From a virus, in the IMG/VR virus record IMGVR_UViG_3300025853_000858, positions 1 through 20,413 of that record: DNA of 20,413 bases; one strand, written 5' to 3'. Shown piece after piece: positions 4,319 through 20,413 of this stretch (position 1 is its first letter; every line of letters begins with the position of its first letter). The position numbers were made by a program, and so were the translations under genes. Below the pieces are notes generated by a model. It was not told the origin of the DNA, ran no database searches, and saw only the letters and a program-made list of their open reading frames with translations.

Positions 4319-5715
4319 CTGCGGTGCCTCTTTGTGAGCATCATTGCTACCTGCGGAGCTTCGTTCAGAAGCGCATTGAACGCCCTACTCGTGCCGTCGA
4401 CGGCATCGTCATGTGCAGCAATCGGGAAGCCCTCAAGCTCGCTGAACCACGCTTCGTTCCACGATCCACGCACAACCCAAACGTTTCCGGCTTCGGCCTG
4501 CGCCGAGAAGGGCGAGAACCGTGTGATCTTGTCGCCGCTCTCCGTCGAGAACCGGACGTTATAGCCCTCAAGGTGCTTGGCGATATCCGAGACCTGTGAC
4601 TTACCCGCCTGCCCCGGATCCTGAGGAATATTGACCTCTGTTTCAGGCCCATCCTCGCCAGCCGTGCCCTTGAGCATTGCCCGCACGCCGCTCGGCCCAT
4701 GATGGCCCCAGCGCGCGTCAGCCACGATGATGCGGCCATCAGGACAGCGCCCGACCTTCACGCCAGCCGTTGCGTCTGGATCGTTGCCATCGGTCTTCGG
4801 TGTGGCTGCCAAATCCCAGCCACGAACCCACCGACAATCAGGCGGGACACGGTCGAGCATGTTCGACTGTGTGACCCACTCCCGCTTGAAATAGAGCCCT
4901 GCAGCGGGTCTGATTTTCCAATTGCCCCCAAGAAGGCGCTCACGCTCGACGGTCGGCAGCGCCATCAACGAGGCCATGTAGCCCGGGTCAGCCGCCATCA
5001 GGGCTTTGTTATCCGTCAGCCGCGCCGCGATGAACGTCACCGACTTCGGCGGGATTGGAACCTGCTCCCCATCTTCGCCAAGCATCGTGTATTCGGCCAA
5101 TTCAGCCGGATCACTGGCCCAGACGATCTTGTCACCGATCCGAACGAACCACCGGACCTTGCCGGAGCGCTCGAGGATCGGCAGCCCCGTCTCTTGGTCG
5201 ATCCACCACTCAATGAACCGCGCCACCCAGCTATCCGCATCAGGGTTGCAGGTGGCCCGCACGTAGGGCCTGACCCCACACATCGAACGGTTGCGCGAGA
5301 GCATGTAGAAGAACTGCTTCTCGCTGAAATGCGTCAGCTCATCGAAGAGGATGAGCGGAATCTGCGACCCCTGATAGTTGTTGACCGTCTTGTCATGCTC
5401 GAGGTGAGCCATAGTGACGGCGGAACCGGCTGGAAATTTCCAATCCAGCACGTTCTCGCGCGGCGATGCGCCGAGGGTTGAGTAGAGCTTTAGGCTTTCA
5501 TCCCAGAGCCCGCCCTCGTTGCGGATCTGGACCGTTGAGCGGCGAAAGAACACCGCACCGAACTCAGGGTTATGGATGTGCCGAAGCGGCTCCATGAGCA
5601 ACGCCCACGTCTTGCCCCCGCCTGCCGATCCTCCGTAAATTGCAATATCCGCCGACGAGCTGAGAAACTGCATCTGCGGCCCAGCTTGTGGCCGGATTGC
5701 ATTAGCCGCGGCCAT
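4315..5715 (-). CDS. terL: Terminase large subunit (DNA-packaging ATPase/nuclease)
   Basis: A 466-aa protein with both terminase domains. The ATPase half has Walker A GGSAGGGKT (28-36) and Walker B LILFDE (121-126). The nuclease half has the RNase-H-like acidic set: WDLAATPKT (Asp301), IPQDPGQAGKSQ (Asp366) and HDDAVDG (Asp437/438/440). It drives packaging of concatemeric DNA through the portal and cuts the ends. The start lies 14 nt inside terS, and its stop overlaps the portal ATG, so terS-terL-portal form one translational chain. Length is normal for the family. The packaging strategy (pac or cos) cannot be read from this. Confidence 0.95.
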   Translation of the reverse strand: MAAANAIRPQAGPQMQFLSSSADIAIYGGSAGGGKTWALLMEPLRHIHNPEFGAVFFRRSTVQIRNEGGLWDESLKLYSTLGASPRENVLDWKFPAGSAVTMAHLEHDKTVNNYQGSQIPLILFDELTHFSEKQFFYMLSRNRSMCGVRPYVRATCNPDADSWVARFIEWWIDQETGLPILERSGKVRWFVRIGDKIVWASDPAELAEYTMLGEDGEQVPIPPKSVTFIAARLTDNKALMAADPGYMASLMALPTVERERLLGGNWKIRPAAGLYFKREWVTQSNMLDRVPPDCRWVRGWDLAATPKTDGNDPDATAGVKVGRCPDGRIIVADARWGHHGPSGVRAMLKGTAGEDGPETEVNIPQDPGQAGKSQVSDIAKHLEGYNVRFSTESGDKITRFSPFSAQAEAGNVWVVRGSWNEAWFSELEGFPIAAHDDAVDGTSRAFNALLNEAPQVAMMLTKRHRR

Positions 5716-6154
5716 TGTCCGGAAGCTGGAAGATCGTCACCTGCTGTTGAGGCAGATCCTTGCCGTCCTTTCCCGTGTGCTCCATGCGCGCGCGAGCTGG
5801 TGCCTCAAGCCCAAACAGCTTCGCCTTGCCTGTAGTGGCAGAGACCATCGCGGACGGATTTCCGACCTTGGCCGCCAAAACTCGCGCCTCCTCGTATTCT
5901 TTGAGGGCCTCCATCCGCGAGAACATGGACAGGGCTTGGGCGTGCTGTTGGAGCTCTTGTATTCTTAGGGAGACCTTAGGGTGATCGAGAAGCTGACTGG
6001 CCTCCACATAAACCCAGTTGTCGCGGGCATTCTCGTCGGTGTTATAGGCCCTGCGATAGGCCTCCGCCGCGTTTCCCGTCTCGAAATATGCGAGGGCAAA
6101 TGCTTCCTGCTTGGGCGTGAGCGGCTTGTCTGTGGCTTCGTCCACTTTAGACAT
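5702..6154 (-). CDS. terS: Terminase small subunit
   Basis: A 150-aa protein of the Terminase_2 type: LTPKQEAFALAYFETGNAAEAYRRAYNT is the N-terminal DNA-binding helix-turn-helix, followed by HPKVSLRIQELQQH and a helical region with FGLEAPARARMEHTG near the C-terminus. It recognises the packaging start site and recruits TerL. The ATG at 6154 has a strong ribosome site (GGAGGTG). A terminator-like hairpin lies immediately upstream, so expression needs either read-through/antitermination or a promoter hidden in the short leader. Confidence 0.9.
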   Translation of the reverse strand: MSKVDEATDKPLTPKQEAFALAYFETGNAAEAYRRAYNTDENARDNWVYVEASQLLDHPKVSLRIQELQQHAQALSMFSRMEALKEYEEARVLAAKVGNPSAMVSATTGKAKLFGLEAPARARMEHTGKDGKDLPQQQVTIFQLPDNGRG

Positions 6155-6170
6155 CGCCCACCTCCAAACG

Positions 6171-6199
6171 AAAAACGCCCCGAGCTTCCCCGAGGCGTT
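6171..6199 (-). terminator. Rho-independent-type terminator upstream of terS
   Basis: On the minus strand AACGCC and GGCGTT form the outer stem (6199-6194 with 6179-6174), two further CG pairs lie inside it, and GTTTTTCG follows. It stops leftward transcription from the AT-rich gene at 6285-6917 before terS. The T run is on the minus strand only. The late operon must therefore be read by an antiterminated or separately initiated transcript. Confidence 0.7.
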
Positions 6200-6207
6200 G
6201 CAGTGCT

Positions 6208-6270
6208 ATGGTCATAACCATGCCGTTGTCACCCACTTTGCACAAGATGTTGTGTGCCGTCAAGTGGGTG
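6208..6270. repeat. Cluster of inverted repeats after the AT-rich gene
   Basis: Three perfect inverted repeats lie here. ATGGT-cata-ACCAT is at 6208-6221. CACCCACTT (6230-6238) pairs with AAGTGGGTG (6262-6270). Nested inside that loop is CACAA-gatg-TTGTG (6241-6254). The bifurcated structure is non-coding and sits between the AT-rich gene and the terminator. It could be an RNA 3' structure, a protein-binding site, or a scar of the insertion. Confidence 0.7.
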
Positions 6271-6284
6271 GTCGATGTTAGGAG

Positions 6285-6917
6285 TTAAGCAGCCGGATTC
6301 CCCGAATTTGGTCTAGCCACAAACTTTATTGATCCATTTGATGCCTGAGTGAGGGCTTCGGCCATGCTCCCGTGAACCAAAAAGGTTACGCAGTCATACT
6401 CACAATCCGTAAGAATGCAATTTTCAAAGCCAATAACACCGTTTAGGTAGGAGTCGCCTATTTCAATAAAATTACAAGAATTTACTGAAAGCCCGTTTGC
6501 AGTAACATTGTTCAAAAAACCAATCACCATTGGTCCGACGAAACGGCACCTATGGAAGCGCTTTCCTGACACTTTCTGATGTTGAAAGCTCCAAATGTCC
6601 TTCGCGAAGATCACTTCTCCCTCAAAGCTATCATCTAAAATGTTGACACGGGTACTTTCCTCGGCGCGTTTCAGATTAACCATGCGACGGGATCGCGCCT
6701 CAAGAAACAAGCCAAACAAATATAAGCAAAAGGAGAAAGCTATCGCACAGGATATACCTACTACCAGATAGCCAACCGGGCCCCAGACAGACAACCAGTT
6801 CGTAACAGCTGCCACGTATGCGCCGAGCCCAGTCACGGCAATCTGCCCAGACAAATAAACGAAGAGCGCCAAGCGCGACTCCAGTCTATCGAGTTGTTTA
6901 TTGATCCAGTTCCACAT
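6285..6917 (-). CDS. AT-rich two-TM membrane protein with beta-helix-like domain (moron)
   Basis: A 210-aa protein with no recognised family. Two hydrophobic segments (about 18-40 and 45-72) form a hairpin in the inner membrane, followed by basic EARSRRMVNLKR. Residues about 90-185 have a repeated beta-strand/turn pattern with regularly placed Cys and Phe (FHRCRFVGPMVIGFLNN, NSCNFIEIGDSYLNG, FENCILTDCEYDC) resembling degenerate pentapeptide or right-handed beta-helix rungs. Composition differs sharply from its surroundings: 6421-6480 has 20 G/C in 60, against 41 in 60 at 7141-7200. The ATG at 6917 lacks a close strong ribosome site; AGGAG lies 17 nt upstream, in better position for an out-of-frame ATG. 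It has its own terminator. A superinfection-exclusion or defence role is a guess from architecture and position. Confidence 0.75.
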   Translation of the reverse strand: MWNWINKQLDRLESRLALFVYLSGQIAVTGLGAYVAAVTNWLSVWGPVGYLVVGISCAIAFSFCLYLFGLFLEARSRRMVNLKRAEESTRVNILDDSFEGEVIFAKDIWSFQHQKVSGKRFHRCRFVGPMVIGFLNNVTANGLSVNSCNFIEIGDSYLNGVIGFENCILTDCEYDCVTFLVHGSMAEALTQASNGSIKFVARPNSGNPAA

Positions 6918-7027: not shown

Positions 7028-7654
7028 TCACCCCTCCACCACATCACGCAGCCGCCGCACAGCCGCCACAAAACTCCGCCCTGCCGCAGTCAGCACGCCC
7101 AGATCGTGCAGCGTCTCTGCCTGCCGGACCACGCCTGCGAGAATGTGGCGCTCCCACGGGCGCAGCTTGGCCATGTGCGCGTCCCACGCTGCCATAGCGT
7201 TGCGGGCATCACGCACCCGCTCATCCTCGGTGCGCAGGTCTGGCCGATCATCCGCCCGCGTCTCCAGCCGCTCTGGCATGAACTCCATCTTGGAAATGCT
7301 CGGGAACCGCGAGCGGCCCAGCACCAGCCGCGAATAGGCGCCGTGTGCGCGATCATAGGCCGTGAACACCTCCCACAGCTTAGCCGCCTCGTCGCCCTCT
7401 GCCGCCAGCGTGATAGCCTGCCCCGCCTGCTCGCACATGATCGGATCCAGCAGCGTTGACCGGTTCGCCCGTGGCATGTGCCGCTTGCGCGCTTCCCGCA
7501 CCGTCTCGGTCGGGTTGTCGATCTCGATTGTCGCCTTGTTCACCTGCTCGGCCTCCTGCCAGTTTTGTTGCATCGCCCTCTTGCCGCCTTTCTTCTGCCT
7601 GCGCCTCGCCGCGCGGCTGTAGGCTCTCGGGGTGATTTGGTCGTGTTTGGTCAT
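7028..7654 (-). CDS. Phage protein of unknown function, last gene of replication operon
   Basis: 208 aa from the ATG that overlaps the upstream stop (ATGA, 7651-7654); further in-frame starts lie inside the neighbour and are rejected. The first 30 residues are very basic (PRAYSRAARRRQKKGGKRA), suggesting nucleic-acid contact. The rest is mostly helical, ending LRPWERHILAGVVRQAETLHDLGVLTAAGRSFVAAVRRLRDVVEG. No catalytic motif is visible. Its place as the last gene before the packaging module is where lambdoid phages keep their late-gene activator (Q), so a late-transcription role is possible but unproven. Confidence 0.7.
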   Translation of the reverse strand: MTKHDQITPRAYSRAARRRQKKGGKRAMQQNWQEAEQVNKATIEIDNPTETVREARKRHMPRANRSTLLDPIMCEQAGQAITLAAEGDEAAKLWEVFTAYDRAHGAYSRLVLGRSRFPSISKMEFMPERLETRADDRPDLRTEDERVRDARNAMAAWDAHMAKLRPWERHILAGVVRQAETLHDLGVLTAAGRSFVAAVRRLRDVVEG

Positions 7655-8316
7655 GCTCCTGCTTCCCGCTTCCGCGCTGCATCCGCGCGCGCTGCCGCAA
7701 TCAGCGGGTTTCGATCCCTCTCCGCCCGCAACGCGTCCCACTTCGGACTATCCGGTGGTGTCACCTCAGACCAGTGCGCCTTGCGTGGCTTTTCCGCTGC
7801 CTCCTCGGCCTCCTCGATACTTGCCGCCATCGGTGCCTTTCGCACCGCGTTCACCGCGCTCACCGTAAAGCCAGCTTGCTGCACGATCCGCTCAACGGCA
7901 GCCTTAGCCGCAGCATCAGGCACATAGCTCTCTGCCTCCTCGCGGCGCTGCGCTTCGGCCTTCTCGCGGCGTTTGATCTCGTCGGTGAACGGCATCAACT
8001 CGCGCTTCGCCAAGATCGCGATTTCGCCCGGGCTCGGCCTGCGAACGCCAGAGCGCTCCCACGCATCGAAGGCCTTGTGCATCGCCCATGTCGGCACATC
8101 TGCCAGCGCGCGAACGAACGCTTCGCGGATTGCCGCCCGATCAGCTGGCGATCCGTCCGGATCGAAATACAGCTTGAGGCAGATGTTTGCCCGCTTGAGG
8201 GTTTCACCCCCGTCGCACGGCGAATGGATCGCGGCTTGCAGTTTCGAGAGCGACTGAGCCGTCAGAGAGACGCTTTGCGGTTTCGTGAATTGCGTGATCG
8301 AAGGCATTTCGCTCAT
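7651..8316 (-). CDS. Phage replication-operon protein, possible helicase-loader-like
   Basis: A 221-aa protein, not assigned to a family. The central segment ALADVPTWAMHKAFDAWERSGVRRPSPGEIAILAKRELMPFTDEIKRREKAEAQRREEAE resembles the helical middle and coiled tail of phage proteins that follow the initiator gene and load the host helicase; that likeness is weak. The ATG at 8316 has AGAAAGG 9 nt upstream. The gene overlaps the 3' end of the DUF1376 gene by 113 bp in another frame, which is unusually long, and no good later start exists before codon 79. The stop overlaps the next start by ATGA. Confidence 0.65.
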   Translation of the reverse strand: MSEMPSITQFTKPQSVSLTAQSLSKLQAAIHSPCDGGETLKRANICLKLYFDPDGSPADRAAIREAFVRALADVPTWAMHKAFDAWERSGVRRPSPGEIAILAKRELMPFTDEIKRREKAEAQRREEAESYVPDAAAKAAVERIVQQAGFTVSAVNAVRKAPMAASIEEAEEAAEKPRKAHWSEVTPPDSPKWDALRAERDRNPLIAAARADAARKREAGA

Positions 8317-9181
8317 TTTGGGTGGCCTTTCTGTGCTCGGAATGGATTGGTTGCAGCGGCGGTGCGTTCAGTTCTCCGGCGCGCCGTCGCATCGCCTCGG
8401 TGAAGTATCGGAAGGAGCTGGGCGGCCCATCGCGCTTTTTCGCCATGAGTTCGCGGATCACGTCGCACTGCTGGTCCAGCGTCAGGTCCATCTTCGCCCA
8501 CCGCTGCGCCTCGGCCATGTCCCCCGGATTACCCAGCATCCGGCCCGTTGCGGTCAGGCCGCTAGTCAGTCCCATCGCTGCGAGAAGCCGTTCCCGCGGT
8601 GTCGGTTCATCGGGCAGAATTTCGGATCGCGCGCCCGCGCTACCACCACCATCATCTAATGTTGGGTTGTTGGGTTGTTGGGTTGGATGTGTCGGCGGTT
8701 TGTCCGTGGAGTTATCCGTGGAAAGTGCCACTTTGTTATTTTTCAATGAGTTATCCGAATTTTCGGCGTTTTCCTCGTTGAAGTCAGGCGCTCCCTGAGG
8801 TTCAGCGTAAGTGCTACTTTCTGGTGAGGTGCCGTTTTTCCGGTCGCTTTGAGCCTGCAAGAAACGCTCCACAAACGCAGCTTCTTCCCGCAATTTCTTC
8901 GATGTCAGGACGCCATTTTCGGAGATCAGGAACGGTCTAATTGCGGGGCCGACGCGCGACTTCCAGAGGCGCGAAGACACCTTTGACACCCGCGCCAACC
9001 GCATATCGTCGTCCGGAAAATCGCACGTCTCACGTGTCCACATCGCCATGATGATCATGATGTATGCGCCGATTTCGTCGGCACAGAGCATCTGCGTGTC
9101 GCGGTGAAATGCGTCCACCCAGATCGGGCAAGGCCTCTTGCCTCGTGCCTTCTTGGCGTTGAATGGCTCTTTTTCGGTCAT
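8204..9181 (-). CDS. DUF1376 replication-initiation-like protein
   Basis: 325 aa. The N-terminal ~110 residues (KRPCPIWVDAFHRDTQMLCADEIGAYIMIIMAMWTRETCDFPDDDMRLARVSKVS...LTSKKLREE) carry the DUF1376 winged-helix-like pattern found in phage replication proteins in the lambda O slot. A low-complexity Asn/Ser/Thr/Pro linker follows (about 118-185), then a helical C-terminal domain (PDEPTPRERLLAAMGL...GDMAEAQRWAKMDLTLDQQCDVIRELMAKKRDGPPSSFRYFTEAMRRR). The linker-coding DNA carries short direct repeats and an AT-rich stretch, the arrangement of a phage origin inside its initiator gene. The ATG shares one base with the stop of the DnaA-domain gene (TAATG), so the genes are coupled. Confidence 0.82.
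   Translation of the reverse strand: MTEKEPFNAKKARGKRPCPIWVDAFHRDTQMLCADEIGAYIMIIMAMWTRETCDFPDDDMRLARVSKVSSRLWKSRVGPAIRPFLISENGVLTSKKLREEAAFVERFLQAQSDRKNGTSPESSTYAEPQGAPDFNEENAENSDNSLKNNKVALSTDNSTDKPPTHPTQQPNNPTLDDGGGSAGARSEILPDEPTPRERLLAAMGLTSGLTATGRMLGNPGDMAEAQRWAKMDLTLDQQCDVIRELMAKKRDGPPSSFRYFTEAMRRRAGELNAPPLQPIHSEHRKATQNERNAFDHAIHETAKRLSDGSVALETASRDPFAVRRG
8661..8775. other. Candidate phage replication origin inside the DUF1376 gene
   Basis: Three perfect tandem copies of GTTGGGTT (8661-8684) are followed by a 10-bp direct repeat GAGTTATCCG at 8709-8718 and 8748-8757, a TCCGTGGA repeat (8703-8710, 8715-8722), the palindrome AAAGTG-c-CACTTT (8722-8734), and an AT-rich stretch (8731-8775). 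GAGTTATCC contains TTATCC, the first six bases of the DnaA box. Tandem iterons plus an AT-rich tract within the initiator gene is the lambda O/ori arrangement. The simpler alternative is a low-complexity protein linker; both may be true. Confidence 0.4.
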
Positions 9182-9483
9182 TACTCTGAAAACTCCCCAG
9201 CCCGCGCCGCCGAAGCCCGCAAGCCATGCACAACCGTGCTGTGATCGCGACCGAAGAACCGACCGATACGGGGCAGCGAATAGCCCAGCCCCTCGCGGAT
9301 CCGACGCATTGCATCCTGCCGCGCGCGGGCAATATGGCGCGTTGTGCCAGTCATGATCTCATCTGCCGTGATGCCAGCCCGTGCAGCCTCATCAGCGGCT
9401 ATGATCGCCATCGGTGCAGGCATGGACCGCGCGGGGCAAGCAACGACCCTCACAGTGGCGGCTAGGAACGTGGCGCGGCTCAT
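9181..9483 (-). CDS. Stand-alone DnaA domain-IV-like DNA-binding protein
   Basis: 100 aa from the ATG at 9483, which overlaps the upstream stop (ATGA) and has GGAG 8 nt before it; a GTG three codons upstream is the alternative start. Residues 26-89 match the C-terminal DNA-binding domain of the replication initiator DnaA: IAADEAARAGITADEIMTGTTRHIARARQDAMRRIREGLGYSLPRIGRFFGRDHSTVVHGL. The signature helix (DHSTVVHG, 80-87) is the part that reads DnaA boxes. The AAA+ domain is absent, so it cannot unwind an origin alone. It could mark phage-origin boxes, compete with host DnaA, or act as a regulator. It is immediately upstream of the DUF1376 replication gene. Confidence 0.88.
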   Translation of the reverse strand: MSRATFLAATVRVVACPARSMPAPMAIIAADEAARAGITADEIMTGTTRHIARARQDAMRRIREGLGYSLPRIGRFFGRDHSTVVHGLRASAARAGEFSE

Positions 9484-9962
9484 TCCAGCCACTCCCCATG
9501 CCCCGGCAAAGCATCACTTGCACCGCCACACCCGACAGCATCCGGCATGATCCGGCGATGCAGCTCTGCATAGTCATCGCGCGCCTTTGGAGCCGATAGA
9601 ACCGCCTTCACATCATCGATGGACCGGACAACGGCATAGATGCCGCCATTGCGTTCAACTATCTCCTGCACGGCCTTCTGTGAGGGCTGCTGCCCGTTAC
9701 CCTTCGCCTTGACCTCAAGCGCGAAGAACTGGCCGCCCATCAGCAAGCCGATATCTGACATGCCCACCAGCATACCTTGCGTTTTTGCGCGGGCTTGCAT
9801 GTTGCGGATGGTCGCTTGACGTTTGGCGCGGTCCTGCCCGCCTCCAGCCTTTGAGGCAAGTTCGTTCGGCACCGAGAAGACCAGCGCGCGCGGGTATTGA
9901 GTGCGCAGGAACTGGACGATTGCGGCTTGGATTGGGCCTTCTCTGTCGATGTTGCGAGTCAT
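9480..9962 (-). CDS. VRR-NUC domain nuclease
   Basis: 160 aa. Residues about 8-120 carry the VRR-NUC form of the PD-(D/E)XK fold: a helix EGPIQAAIVQFLRTQYPRA, then SVPNE, then GMSDIGLLMGGQFFALEVKAKGNGQQPSQKAVQE, with Asp70, Glu83-x-Lys85 and Gln95 as likely active-site residues. Phage VRR-NUC proteins are thought to act on branched DNA, such as Holliday junctions, during recombination and before packaging, in the slot where other phages carry RusA. The gene is linked by ATGA overlaps on both sides. The substrate is inferred from the family. Confidence 0.87.
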   Translation of the reverse strand: MTRNIDREGPIQAAIVQFLRTQYPRALVFSVPNELASKAGGGQDRAKRQATIRNMQARAKTQGMLVGMSDIGLLMGGQFFALEVKAKGNGQQPSQKAVQEIVERNGGIYAVVRSIDDVKAVLSAPKARDDYAELHRRIMPDAVGCGGASDALPGHGEWLE

Positions 9963-10648
9963 AGTAATTCCCCCTGCATGGGGTCGGAAACCTCACGGTA
10001 CAGGCGCTTGCGAATCCACTCATTCGGCCCCGCTGCGGGGCGGTTTAGGTCCCAAACAAACCACGAATTGCGCTGCGGAGGACTTCCACCACCGCGAAAA
10101 TCAATTTTCCAGCAACACAGATATTCCACTGATGGCGGATGATCGTGCAGTAGCTTGTCAAAGCCGTTGATGCGCGCGGCGGGCCAATCTGCATTCAGAA
10201 GCAGCGCCACATAGCCAAAGCCTAGGTCCATCGAGTGACGCAGCCATCTTCCATGCCCATTCGAGGCATTGATCATGTTGTAGGGTGGATTCGTGATCTG
10301 AATCGGCGCGCGCGGCGAAATGCAGTCAAAGAAGCTGCGAAGCTCAACGCCGTCCCACCCGCGATCAACAACATCATTCCCGAGAACGTCGAAGCCGAAC
10401 TCCGTCAGAACACGTGCGATATGCCCAGCCCCAACGGCTGTTTCTAAAACGGTATTTCCGTGCGCTCGAATGAACTCATATTCCGCAGAGATGAAGGGCC
10501 GCGTTGCGCTCTCTGGCGTCGGGTCGAAATCAAGAGGATCCCGCGTGCGTGGCGCTGCGGCCTCTGCGAAATCACCGAGCGAAATTTGCCGCTTGTCGTG
10601 CTTGGGCTTTATCGCGGTGAAAAGCGGTTTTGCTGAGACGGATGCCAT
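9959..10648 (-). CDS. Phage DNA adenine (N6) methyltransferase-like protein
   Basis: 229 aa. SAM-binding motif I is VLETAVGAGHIARVL (67-81), motif II is GNDVVDRG (90-97), and catalytic motif IV is NPPYN (120-124), the [DNS]PPY signature of amino-methyltransferases acting on adenine N6. An upstream DPLDFDPTPESATRPF block is typical of phage members. No restriction enzyme is adjacent, so it is probably an orphan enzyme that shields phage DNA from host restriction or marks replicated DNA. The target site cannot be read from sequence. The start shares one base with the preceding stop (TGATG) and its stop overlaps the VRR-NUC start (ATGA). Confidence 0.85.
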   Translation of the reverse strand: MASVSAKPLFTAIKPKHDKRQISLGDFAEAAAPRTRDPLDFDPTPESATRPFISAEYEFIRAHGNTVLETAVGAGHIARVLTEFGFDVLGNDVVDRGWDGVELRSFFDCISPRAPIQITNPPYNMINASNGHGRWLRHSMDLGFGYVALLLNADWPAARINGFDKLLHDHPPSVEYLCCWKIDFRGGGSPPQRNSWFVWDLNRPAAGPNEWIRKRLYREVSDPMQGELL

Positions 10649-18804: not shown

Positions 18805-18961
18805 CCCCGACCGCCTCCCGCATCTCGCCCGCCTCGCCGAGGCCCACGACCCAGAACCCACGCAACCCCGCCGCATGCCCTCGGGCTGGTGGCTACTGCC
18901 CGCGCTGATCGTGAGTGTGGGGCTATCCATCACACGCACCATAAGGAAGGCTCTGGTATGA
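18797..18961 (+). CDS. 54-aa single-TM phage protein
   Basis: 54 aa from the ATG at 18797, 8 nt inside the previous gene. A soluble, Pro-rich N-terminus (MDNPDRLPHLARLAEAHDPE...) leads to one hydrophobic segment (about 31-46, WWLLPALIVSVGLSIT) and a basic end (RTIRKALV). Its stop overlaps the xis-like start (ATGA). No family is recognised. Confidence 0.6.
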   Translation: MDNPDRLPHLARLAEAHDPEPTQPRRMPSGWWLLPALIVSVGLSITRTIRKALV

Positions 18962-19176
18962 GTAAGCATGAGGATTTCAAAACCGCCGCGATGCTGCCGG
19001 CACTGATGCGAGTTTCAGAAGCCCAGACACATTTCAACGTTTCGCGGTCCACGATCTATCGCGCTGCGAAAGCTGGCGAGATCAAGCTGTATAAGCGGTG
19101 CGGGACGCGGGTTGATACGGAGGAACTGCGGGCGTGGTTGTCGCCGGATGATGAAGGCAGCGAGCGGCCCCAGTAA
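18958..19176 (+). CDS. Excisionase-like HTH (MerR/HTH_17-type) protein
   Basis: 72 aa. MRVSEAQTHFNVSRSTIYRAAKAGEIKLYKRCGTRVDTEELRAWLS is a winged HTH of the excisionase/HTH_17 type, with recognition helix SRSTIYRAAKAG. AAGGAAGG lies 7 nt before the ATG. It is the last phage gene, about 85 bp from the 3' end of tRNA-Thr, where Xis proteins bind to direct excision. The overlap with the previous stop (ATGA) keeps it in the early operon, so it would be made only on induction. No integrase gene follows it. Confidence 0.8.
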   Translation: MSKHEDFKTAAMLPALMRVSEAQTHFNVSRSTIYRAAKAGEIKLYKRCGTRVDTEELRAWLSPDDEGSERPQ

Positions 19177-19260: not shown

Positions 19261-19336
19261 TGGTGCCGCTGAAGGGACTCGAACCCCCGACCCCATCATT
19301 ACGAATGACGTGCTCTACCAGCTGAGCTACAGCGGC
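19261..19336 (-). tRNA. tRNA-Thr (anticodon CGT)
   Basis: A full cloverleaf on the minus strand. The acceptor GCCGCTG/CAGCGGC is 7 bp. The anticodon stem is CGTCA/TGATG with loop TTCGTAA, giving anticodon CGT. The T arm contains GGTTCGAGTCC and the discriminator A is followed by an encoded CCA (19263-19261). The 3' end faces the prophage, and tRNA 3' ends are classic tyrosine-recombinase attachment sites; the phage therefore probably rebuilt this end on integration and kept the tRNA functional. Confidence 0.96.
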
Positions 19337-19376
19337 CTGGTGGCGCGCCGGATAGCACCTTCTCCGGCGGATGTGT

Positions 19377-19404
19377 AGCCCCTTTTTTAGGTCGGGGCTT
19401 TTTT
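19377..19404 (+). terminator. Terminator between tRNA-Thr and hemY-like gene
   Basis: AGCCCC (19377-19382) pairs with GGGGCT (19394-19399) and is followed by TTTTTT on the plus strand. It would stop rightward prophage transcription before it runs antisense into the hemY-like gene. A second stem, CGCCGGA/TCCGGCG (19346-19352 with 19363-19369), lies just before it. Confidence 0.7.
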
Positions 19405-19432
19405 CCGGAGATTTCCGACGCGCCGATTGAGG

Positions 19433-20413
19433 TTAGACTGTCTTTCGCGCCATCGCGACCGCGTCATCAAGCGGGAGAACCTCCGCCTCTTCGACATCCG
19501 ATGTCTCGGTCTCCTGCGCGTCCTCCGCCACGGGCTCTTCGACCTCTTCCGCCTCGTCGATCTGCGGCTTGCCCACGATCAACGGCAGCATCTCCGCGCC
19601 ATGCGGCAGGGTGGTCGTCGCATGCGGCGCATCGCGCCACGACAGCGTATCGAACCCGCCGCAGTTGGGGCAAACGGGGCCCCATTCCTCATGCACGGAT
19701 TGGCAGGTATCGCAGATCCACTGTTTGCCGCGCGGCGCGGTCAGCGCCCGCGTGAGCCAGCCGCGCACGACCGTATCATCGGCCCCTTCGCCCCGCTCGA
19801 CGGCCGCCATGATCGTGAGGGCGCGCACGGTTGGACGCGTCGAGATCAGATCGCCCAGCGCGCGCCGCGCGGCTGGGAAGTCTTCCGCCGCGATCAGCAA
19901 TTCCGCCTGCAGCAAGCGGCTTTCCTCGGCGTCGGGTGCCTGCTTGATCAGCGCCGCAAACCGCTTGAGACGCGCGGAAGGGGCCTCATCGGGGGCAATC
20001 TCGGCATAGGCGGAGGCCAGATCGGGATGCGGCTGTGCGCCCCATGCCTTCTCCAGCACCCGCGCTGCGTTCTTTTGTTGGCCATTGGCAATATAGCCCC
20101 GCGCCGCCATCGCCGCTGCCGGAATCAGATCCGGCGAGGCTTTATTCGCCGCAATCGCTGCCTCGCGCGCCTCCACAGAGGCTGTCTCGTCGAGAATGCC
20201 TTTGGCCTCCTGCAAGGCCAAAACGGCATCGCGGCGGCGGTGCACCTCTTTGGGCAATTGCCCCTGACGCGCCTTCGCGGAAAGCACTTCGCGCGCACCC
20301 TTCCAATCGCCCGCGCCCGCTTGCAGTTGCAGCAGCGTATCTTGTGTATCCACATGCTTGGGCTTCATCGAGAAGGCCTTCTCGGCCAGTTTCAACGCGG
20401 TTGCGGTATCGCC
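19433..20413 (-). CDS. hemY: HemY-like TPR protein with C-terminal zinc ribbon (partial)
   Basis: The frame is open to the right edge, so the N-terminus, with the expected membrane segments, is missing; the visible part is about 326 residues. TPR-like helical repeats (AEKAFSMKPKHVDTQDTLLQLQAGAGDWKGAREVL, AARVLEKAWGAQPHPDLASAYAEI, RLLQAELLIAAEDFPAARRALGDLI) match HemY, a membrane protein encoded with heme-biosynthesis genes in proteobacteria. After them come WICDTCQSVHEEWGPVCPNCGGFDTLSW, a zinc ribbon with two CxxC pairs seen in alphaproteobacterial HemY, and an acidic tail. This is host chromosome beyond the prophage. HemY's exact role in heme synthesis remains unsettled. Confidence 0.88.
   Translation of the reverse strand, partial: GDTATALKLAEKAFSMKPKHVDTQDTLLQLQAGAGDWKGAREVLSAKARQGQLPKEVHRRRDAVLALQEAKGILDETASVEAREAAIAANKASPDLIPAAAMAARGYIANGQQKNAARVLEKAWGAQPHPDLASAYAEIAPDEAPSARLKRFAALIKQAPDAEESRLLQAELLIAAEDFPAARRALGDLISTRPTVRALTIMAAVERGEGADDTVVRGWLTRALTAPRGKQWICDTCQSVHEEWGPVCPNCGGFDTLSWRDAPHATTTLPHGAEMLPLIVGKPQIDEAEEVEEPVAEDAQETETSDVEEAEVLPLDDAVAMARKTV

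What the first reader, a model, noticed from the sequence alone, without database searches (positions are those of the whole stretch)
6171..6917. AT-rich membrane/beta-helix moron with private hairpins and terminator between replication and packaging modules
The 210-aa protein (two TM segments plus beta-helix-like rungs with regular Cys/Phe) has no recognised family. Its DNA is much poorer in G+C than its flanks (20/60 against 41/60 in sampled lines). It is followed by three inverted repeats, one nested, and a terminator placed right in front of terS. That is the signature of a lysogen-expressed accessory gene. A membrane hairpin with a cytoplasmic sensor-like domain suits an exclusion or abortive-infection protein.
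Basis: partly seen in the sequence, partly recalled or inferred. Interest (0 to 1): 0.7.

Follow-up and report, generated by a model that had tools for sequence, protein, structure and literature searches.

The report
Phage-borne membrane-anchored knotted-solenoid-family protein
A temperate phage carries, in a swappable gene slot just before its DNA-packaging genes, a foreign gene for a membrane-anchored relative of a newly described protein fold that can tie a knot; similar genes ride on unrelated phages and a jumping gene, so it is probably mobile cargo that protects or changes the host cell.

Summary
ORF 6285-6917(-) is 46.4% G+C; the other genes are 60.6±3.3%. Three hairpins follow it, the last terminator-like, just before terS. 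No Pfam, NCBIfam or PADLOC family matches, yet it is not familyless. Four distant homologues share the layout (membrane hairpin, then a Cys/Phe β-solenoid). A profile of all five has exactly three significant hits in the whole PDB: Knotted Solenoids 9RDS, 9SOJ and 9QIX (E 4e-7 to 2.5e-6), a fold published in 2026 with unknown function. The homologues are cargo: in the putative moron cluster of Variovorax phage VarioGold; between Rz and terS of another viral contig, beside a moron glycosyltransferase; inside a complete IS1595-type element with 8-bp target duplication; and beside a truncated IS1595 transposase. The slot varies: Paracoccus phage Pkon1 has it empty, Pyei1 holds a histidine kinase. 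Best reading: a moron for an inner-membrane protein with a cytoplasmic knotted-solenoid-type domain. Exclusion or abortive infection is plausible but untested. Whether the phage form is knotted is unknown; its core segment is 3-8 residues shorter. Side finding: chromosomal knotted-solenoid genes lie between pheS and pheT in all 11 loci examined.

The parts
6285..6917 (-). CDS, 210 aa: membrane-anchored Knotted-Solenoid-family protein (TM-KS)
   Evidence: ORF; profile of five TM-KS proteins hits 9RDS/9SOJ/9QIX at 4e-7 to 2.5e-6; homologues in VarioGold, L102/L103, L113
6810..6875 (-). first membrane segment (about residues 15-36), moderate hydrophobicity
   Evidence: helix 2-45 in the model; below the 1.6 Kyte-Doolittle cut-off; VarioGold homologue annotated with two TM segments
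6702..6776 (-). second membrane segment (about residues 48-72), followed by EARSRRMVNLKR, which suggests a cytoplasmic C-terminal domain
   Evidence: hydropathy 2.2 over residues 51-69; helix 47-88; positive-inside reading is inference
6336..6644 (-). Knotted-Solenoid-type β-solenoid domain (about residues 92-194): FHRCRFVGP, ENCILTDC, C-terminal helix
   Evidence: model of residues 80-210, pLDDT 75, pTM 0.68; invariant F121, C124, G128, P129, C167, C172, T178 in five proteins
6230..6270 (-). hairpin 1: 9-bp stem with nested 5-bp stem
   Evidence: (I2)
6205..6223 (-). hairpin 2
6174..6199 (-). intrinsic-terminator-like hairpin (11-bp stem, T tail) in front of terS
5702..6154 (-). terS, one border of the cargo slot
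   Evidence: PF03592, E 4.5e-14
7028..7741 (-). other border of the slot: 237-aa gene of unknown function, homologous to pkon1_p32 and pyei1_p29, which also precede terS
   Evidence: no Pfam or PHROG family

Best explanation
The gene is a moron: mobile cargo dropped into the variable slot between the end of the early/replication operon and terS of a temperate phage. It encodes a small inner-membrane protein: a membrane hairpin at the N-terminus, then a β-solenoid domain of the Knotted Solenoid family that most likely faces the cytoplasm and, like its solved relatives, may dimerise. Shown here: composition, slot variability, homology to Knotted Solenoids, and repeated carriage by unrelated mobile elements. 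Inferred: inner-membrane N-in/C-in topology, dimerisation, expression in the lysogen. Most likely use (inference, about 0.35 on its own): superinfection exclusion or a related protection of the lysogen at the inner membrane, with the solenoid domain contacting a host or phage component on the cytoplasmic side.
For: Composition outlier. The five-protein profile hits only 9RDS, 9SOJ and 9QIX significantly in the PDB, 4e-7 to 2.5e-6, next hit 1.3; reverse search and shuffles agree; window plus VarioGold alone already reach 9RDS at 1.1e-3 and a Caulobacterales-type member at 7e-9. The VarioGold homologue lies in VG_p25-p28, which its authors call putative moron-like and perhaps active in lysogeny, with an O-antigen ligase. 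The L113 homologue (35.6% G+C, flanks 50.6%) lies between endolysin/Rz and terS, before a PHROG 'moron' glycosyltransferase, and has its own 11-bp-stem terminator. The L102 homologue is inside an IS1595-type element, 8592-10375, with 23-bp inverted repeats and 8-bp duplication GCCTTAAA. Slot empty in Pkon1, histidine kinase in Pyei1. No homologue in the 80 TerL-relative loci, although many are cut short upstream.
Against: No promoter recognised before the gene and no expression data. The terminators may be the phage's own, since Pkon1 has them at the same boundary without cargo. No direct evidence of any anti-phage activity; PADLOC matches are weak and scattered. TM1 is only moderately hydrophobic in four of the five proteins.
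Confidence: 0.72

Rival explanations
1. It is a 2TM-type abortive-infection effector: the solenoid senses an infection signal, the dimer or a larger assembly opens the membrane and the cell dies before phage release.
For: Layout of membrane hairpin plus β-rich ligand-like domain; weak matches of single members to CARF_TM (5e-4), Csx27 (2e-3) and 2TM effector (0.03) models in PADLOC.
Against: Those matches are each in one member of five and probably reflect hydrophobic helices; no partner enzyme gene recognised beside any of the five copies.
Confidence: 0.15
2. It is a host-physiology cargo gene whose solenoid domain does what the chromosomal Knotted Solenoids do, possibly connected with phenylalanyl-tRNA synthetase, only tethered to the membrane.
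For: Knotted-solenoid genes lie between pheS and pheT in all 11 chromosomal loci examined; the domain is homologous.
Against: The mobile forms are not beside pheS or pheT; operon position alone does not show interaction; identity is only about 19-30%.
Confidence: 0.15
3. It is a late gene helping lysis or assembly, since two homologues lie beside lysis genes.
For: L113 copy follows Rz; VarioGold copy is near the lysis module.
Against: VarioGold copy is on the strand opposite to the lysis and structural genes; the copy in the insertion sequence has no lysis genes around it; in the window the gene is cut off from terS by a terminator-like hairpin.
Confidence: 0.07
4. It is a decaying or non-expressed relic.
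For: AT-rich, no promoter recognised.
Against: Intact frame and conserved motif residues across five proteins 19-62% identical.
Confidence: 0.06

Closest known systems
Knotted Solenoid proteins 9RDS, 9QIX, 9SOJ (Brevundimonas; PNAS 2026, PMC13123833)
   Same: Homologous domain (E 4e-7); Phe-x-x-Cys and Gly-Pro at the start of the knot core; predicted first coil with helix, four coils, C-terminal cap helix; size within the published range (100-160 aa, to 250 with an N-terminal domain).
   Different: N-terminal membrane hairpin; carried by phages and an insertion sequence rather than the pheS-pheT operon; Pro-to-Cys core segment 37-40 residues instead of 43-45; third-coil Phe-x-x-Cys kept only in VarioGold; knot and dimer unproven.
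Variovorax phage VarioGold VG_p28
   Same: Same layout and length; tblastn E 4e-5; cargo position in a temperate phage.
   Different: 19-25% identity; sits by attP in an O-antigen-ligase cluster, not before terS; annotated only as 'two transmembrane segments'.
Inner-membrane superinfection exclusion proteins, P22 SieA and HK97 gp15 (PMC10883804)
   Same: Small prophage-encoded proteins; SieA shown and gp15 predicted to be in the inner membrane; gp15 is a moron.
   Different: SieA has three predicted TM segments; no sequence relation shown to either; no exclusion tested here.
Pentapeptide repeat proteins (AlbG, Qnr, MfpA)
   Same: β-solenoid with Phe/Cys rungs; weak fold matches, Z 3-4.
   Different: Below every Pfam threshold; PDB profile E 1.3 against 4e-7 for Knotted Solenoids.

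Membership tests
Knotted Solenoid | significant sequence similarity to solved members | tested here: met
   only significant PDB matches, confirmed by reverse search and shuffles
Knotted Solenoid | Gly-Pro at the start of the knot core | tested here: met
   G128-P129 invariant in all five TM-KS and in the Brevundimonas proteins
Knotted Solenoid | Phe then Cys three residues later at the start of coils 2, 3 and 4 | tested here: inconclusive
   coil 2 met in 5/5; coil 4 keeps the Cys pair in 5/5; coil 3 FxxC only in VarioGold (FNRC), VNSC in the window, absent in L102/L103
Knotted Solenoid | coil order in secondary structure: two strands plus helix, three further coils, C-terminal helix | tested here: met
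   E18-25, H26-32, E36-55, E60-73, E83-102, H104-113 in the domain model; the input alignment contained family members, so this is not independent
Knotted Solenoid | skip-and-backtrack shift and 3_1 knot | not testable with these tools
   no coordinates are released by the predictor; core segment is 3-8 residues shorter
Knotted Solenoid | fold match to the crystal structures | tested here: inconclusive
   9RDS/9QIX/9SOJ not listed by Foldseek or VIA-align 2; the library stops at 2026-04-08 and may lack them
Knotted Solenoid | homodimer through a hydrophobic face | not testable with these tools
   needs multimer prediction or biophysics
Phage moron | extra gene absent from close relatives at a variable locus | tested here: met
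   Pkon1 empty, Pyei1 other cargo; absent from L003-L082 where the region is covered
Phage moron | atypical base composition | tested here: met
   46.4% against 60.6±3.3%
Phage moron | own promoter and terminator | tested here: inconclusive
   terminator-like hairpin yes, but the same boundary has such hairpins without cargo in Pkon1; no promoter recognised
Phage moron | expression in the lysogen | not testable with these tools
   no transcript data
Superinfection exclusion protein | inner-membrane location | not testable with these tools
   membrane segments predicted only
Superinfection exclusion protein | blocks infection by other phages | not testable with these tools
   needs a plating assay
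Pentapeptide repeat (PF00805/PF13576) | Pfam gathering score | tested here: not met
   no match for the window protein; homologues L102/L103 reach 13.5-15.7 bits against a cut-off of 27

The most novel reading that the evidence does not exclude
The mobile, membrane-anchored forms are a distinct branch of the Knotted Solenoid family that spreads on phages and insertion sequences as an anti-phage or host-modifying module, and with their shorter core segment some of them are unknotted: the unknotted relatives that the fold's discoverers looked for and did not find.
Probability: 0.2. Interest if true: 0.85.

Novelty: new variant of a known kind. Interest (0 to 1): 0.6.

Why it matters
The Knotted Solenoid fold was published in 2026 with no known function; the paper's main text mentions neither phages nor gene neighbourhood. 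Here is a membrane-anchored branch repeatedly carried by mobile elements, which points to a selectable trait and offers easy tests (phage challenge, localisation). The chromosomal branch turns out to sit between pheS and pheT, which gives a first functional lead for the solved proteins. The shorter core makes the question 'when does this solenoid become knotted?' testable within one family.

Tried and rejected
(1) Close-relative searches in IMG/VR and GTDB contigs with the window protein, VarioGold's or (in IMG/VR) the 9RDS fragment found no relatives of the phage form; a DNA pattern for NC-x-[FL]-x2-C-x-[FY]-x2-VT found one (L113). (2) An alignment of all five was too diverged for another scan. 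(3) Foldseek and VIA-align gave only generic β-solenoids and SV2 luminal domains at Z about 4; no function was read from them. 9RDS was not listed, which proves nothing. (4) Plasmid collection: no TM-KS; one 16% partial hit at E 0.7 in Sinorhizobium ignored. (5) Rfam: nothing but the tRNA, so the hairpins are no described RNA. (6) IS1595-type inverted repeats around the window gene: none. (7) LeoBC hit in PADLOC (0.03) rejected as membrane-helix noise. (8) A DNA-mimic reading (as for MfpA): net charge of the window domain only -4, not compelling.

Full report
What is there. The window is the right part of an integrated temperate phage: packaging and head genes on the left, a leftward early/replication operon, repressor and recombination genes, an excisionase, then tRNA-Thr and a hemY-like chromosomal gene at the right end (the hemY name is my reading of the protein). 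Its closest annotated phages are Paracoccus phages Pyei1 and Pkon1, so a Paracoccus or related host is likely (inference). The gene in question, 6285-6917 on the minus strand, encodes 210 aa and lies between a 237-aa gene of unknown function (7028-7741) and terS (5702-6154).

Observation. Its G+C is 46.4% (GC3 49.8%) against 60.6±3.3% (GC3 68.8±6.5%) for 27 other listed reading frames. Three hairpins follow it; the 133-nt block folds 4.2 standard deviations better than shuffles, and the last hairpin is terminator-like, 20 nt before terS. There is no Pfam or NCBIfam match and only insignificant PHROG and PADLOC ones.

Homologues. tblastn found VG_p28 of Variovorax phage VarioGold (E 4e-5), annotated as a protein with two transmembrane segments. 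A profile of the two then found, in 395 genomes of the family of a genome whose HemY is 60% identical to that of the window, two further copies: L102:9587-10312 and L103:863-1606. A DNA pattern from their shared motif found a fifth in a viral contig, L113:983-1609. The five are 19-62% identical and share F121, C124, G128, P129, C167, C172 and T178. All are AT-rich against their flanks (CDS/flank G+C): window 46.7/61.0, VarioGold 51.5/59.5, L113 35.6/50.6, L102 49.4/59.5, L103 48.6/67.9%.

Family. With the single window sequence the PDB search already pointed, insignificantly, to three chains of the knotted solenoid work. The profile of two reaches 9RDS at 1.1e-3; the profile of five reaches 9RDS, 9SOJ and 9QIX at 4e-7, 1.7e-6 and 2.5e-6, the next PDB hit being a pentapeptide protein at 1.3. 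A profile of Brevundimonas knotted solenoids finds all five in return, and 1000 shuffles on each side score below them. These proteins were described in 2026 (PMC13123833): a triangular β-solenoid with a skip-and-backtrack coil order and a trefoil knot, homodimeric, function unknown, half of them from Caulobacteraceae, some up to 250 aa with an extra N-terminal domain. The mobile proteins fit that last size class; whether the paper's N-terminal domain is this membrane hairpin I could not check.

Structure. The full-length model has two long N-terminal helices and a low-confidence solenoid (pLDDT 66). The domain alone, with L113 and ten chromosomal sequences, gives pLDDT 75 and pTM 0.68 with the coil and helix order published for the family; the alignment contained family members, so this agreement is not independent. 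Coordinates are not released, so the knot could not be tested. The stretch from the Gly-Pro to the fourth-coil Cys is 37-40 residues in the mobile proteins and 43-45 in the chromosomal ones, so the backtracking linker is probably shorter and the knot is an open question. The basic stretch after TM2 suggests a cytoplasmic domain (inference).

Cargo nature. VarioGold: VG_p25-p28, next to attP, called putative moron-like by its authors, with an O-antigen ligase. L113: endolysin, Rz, the gene, its own terminator, then a glycosyltransferase of a PHROG 'moron' family, HNH, terS, terL. L102: the gene and an IS1595-type transposase (PF12762, E 5.7e-36) lie together between 23-bp inverted repeats (78% complementary), flanked by an 8-bp duplication GCCTTAAA, that is, a complete element with a passenger gene. 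L103: beside a truncated IS1595-type transposase. In the window no such repeats are seen. The slot itself varies: homologues of the 237-aa gene precede terS in Pkon1 (slot empty, 433 bp) and Pyei1 (a GAF/HisKA_2 histidine kinase and a tail-Z-like gene). Around the empty slot Pkon1 has four terminator-like hits against 0.5 expected, two of them with 8-9-bp stems inside the slot, so the hairpins of the window may be the phage's boundary between early and packaging transcription rather than parts of the cargo.

Function. Shown: a mobile accessory gene, membrane-anchored by prediction, homologous to knotted solenoids. Inferred: it acts in the lysogen at the inner membrane. Superinfection exclusion is my first choice because small inner-membrane prophage proteins such as P22 SieA and the HK97 gp15 moron do this (PMC10883804) and because two homologues travel with surface-modifying genes; I put it at about 0.35. 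An abortive-infection effector and a host-physiology role remain open.

Side finding. In the eleven chromosomal loci examined (six Brevundimonas loci L083-L088 and genomes G066, G281, G617, G652, G663) one or two knotted-solenoid genes lie between pheS and pheT. The paper's main text does not mention tRNA or operons.

Rarity. The membrane-anchored form was seen in 2 of 395 genomes of one family and in none of the 385 class-wide and 398 phylum-wide genomes searched.

Noticed in passing
L083-L088, L091, L104, L105, L134, L135: Chromosomal knotted-solenoid genes, including the gene of crystal structure 9RDS, lie between pheS and pheT, one or two in tandem, in every locus examined; in L083 the gene starts at the pheS stop. 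A functional lead for a family with no known function.
   Followed up: partly
L102:8592-10375: Complete IS1595-type element (transposase plus TM-KS passenger gene) with 23-bp inverted repeats and 8-bp target duplication GCCTTAAA.
   Followed up: yes
L103:674-1680: TM-KS beside an IS1595-type transposase that is cut short, with a small frame from about 715 that may be another passenger gene and short inverted repeats at 674-687 and 1667-1680; element borders unclear.
   Followed up: partly
L140:4744-5976: Paracoccus phage Pyei1 carries a GAF/HisKA_2 histidine kinase in the slot before terS, an unusual phage cargo.
   Followed up: partly
window 7028-7741: 237-aa gene of no known family, conserved in position before terS in Paracoccus phages Pkon1 and Pyei1; may be a late-gene regulator (guess).
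   Followed up: no
L027:3-1957: Another IMG/VR record (3300034375_003033) has TerL and portal 100% identical to the window over the part covered: the same or a very near phage; its contig begins inside terL, so the slot is not covered.
   Followed up: no
window 19261-20395: tRNA-Thr and the end of a hemY-like chromosomal gene at the right end suggest integration at tRNA-Thr; an excisionase-like gene (18889-19176) lies beside it and no integrase was noticed in the window.
   Followed up: no
L113:3476-3994: A second AT-rich gene (39% G+C, opposite strand, phrog_3983 of unknown function) lies among the moron genes before terS.
   Followed up: no
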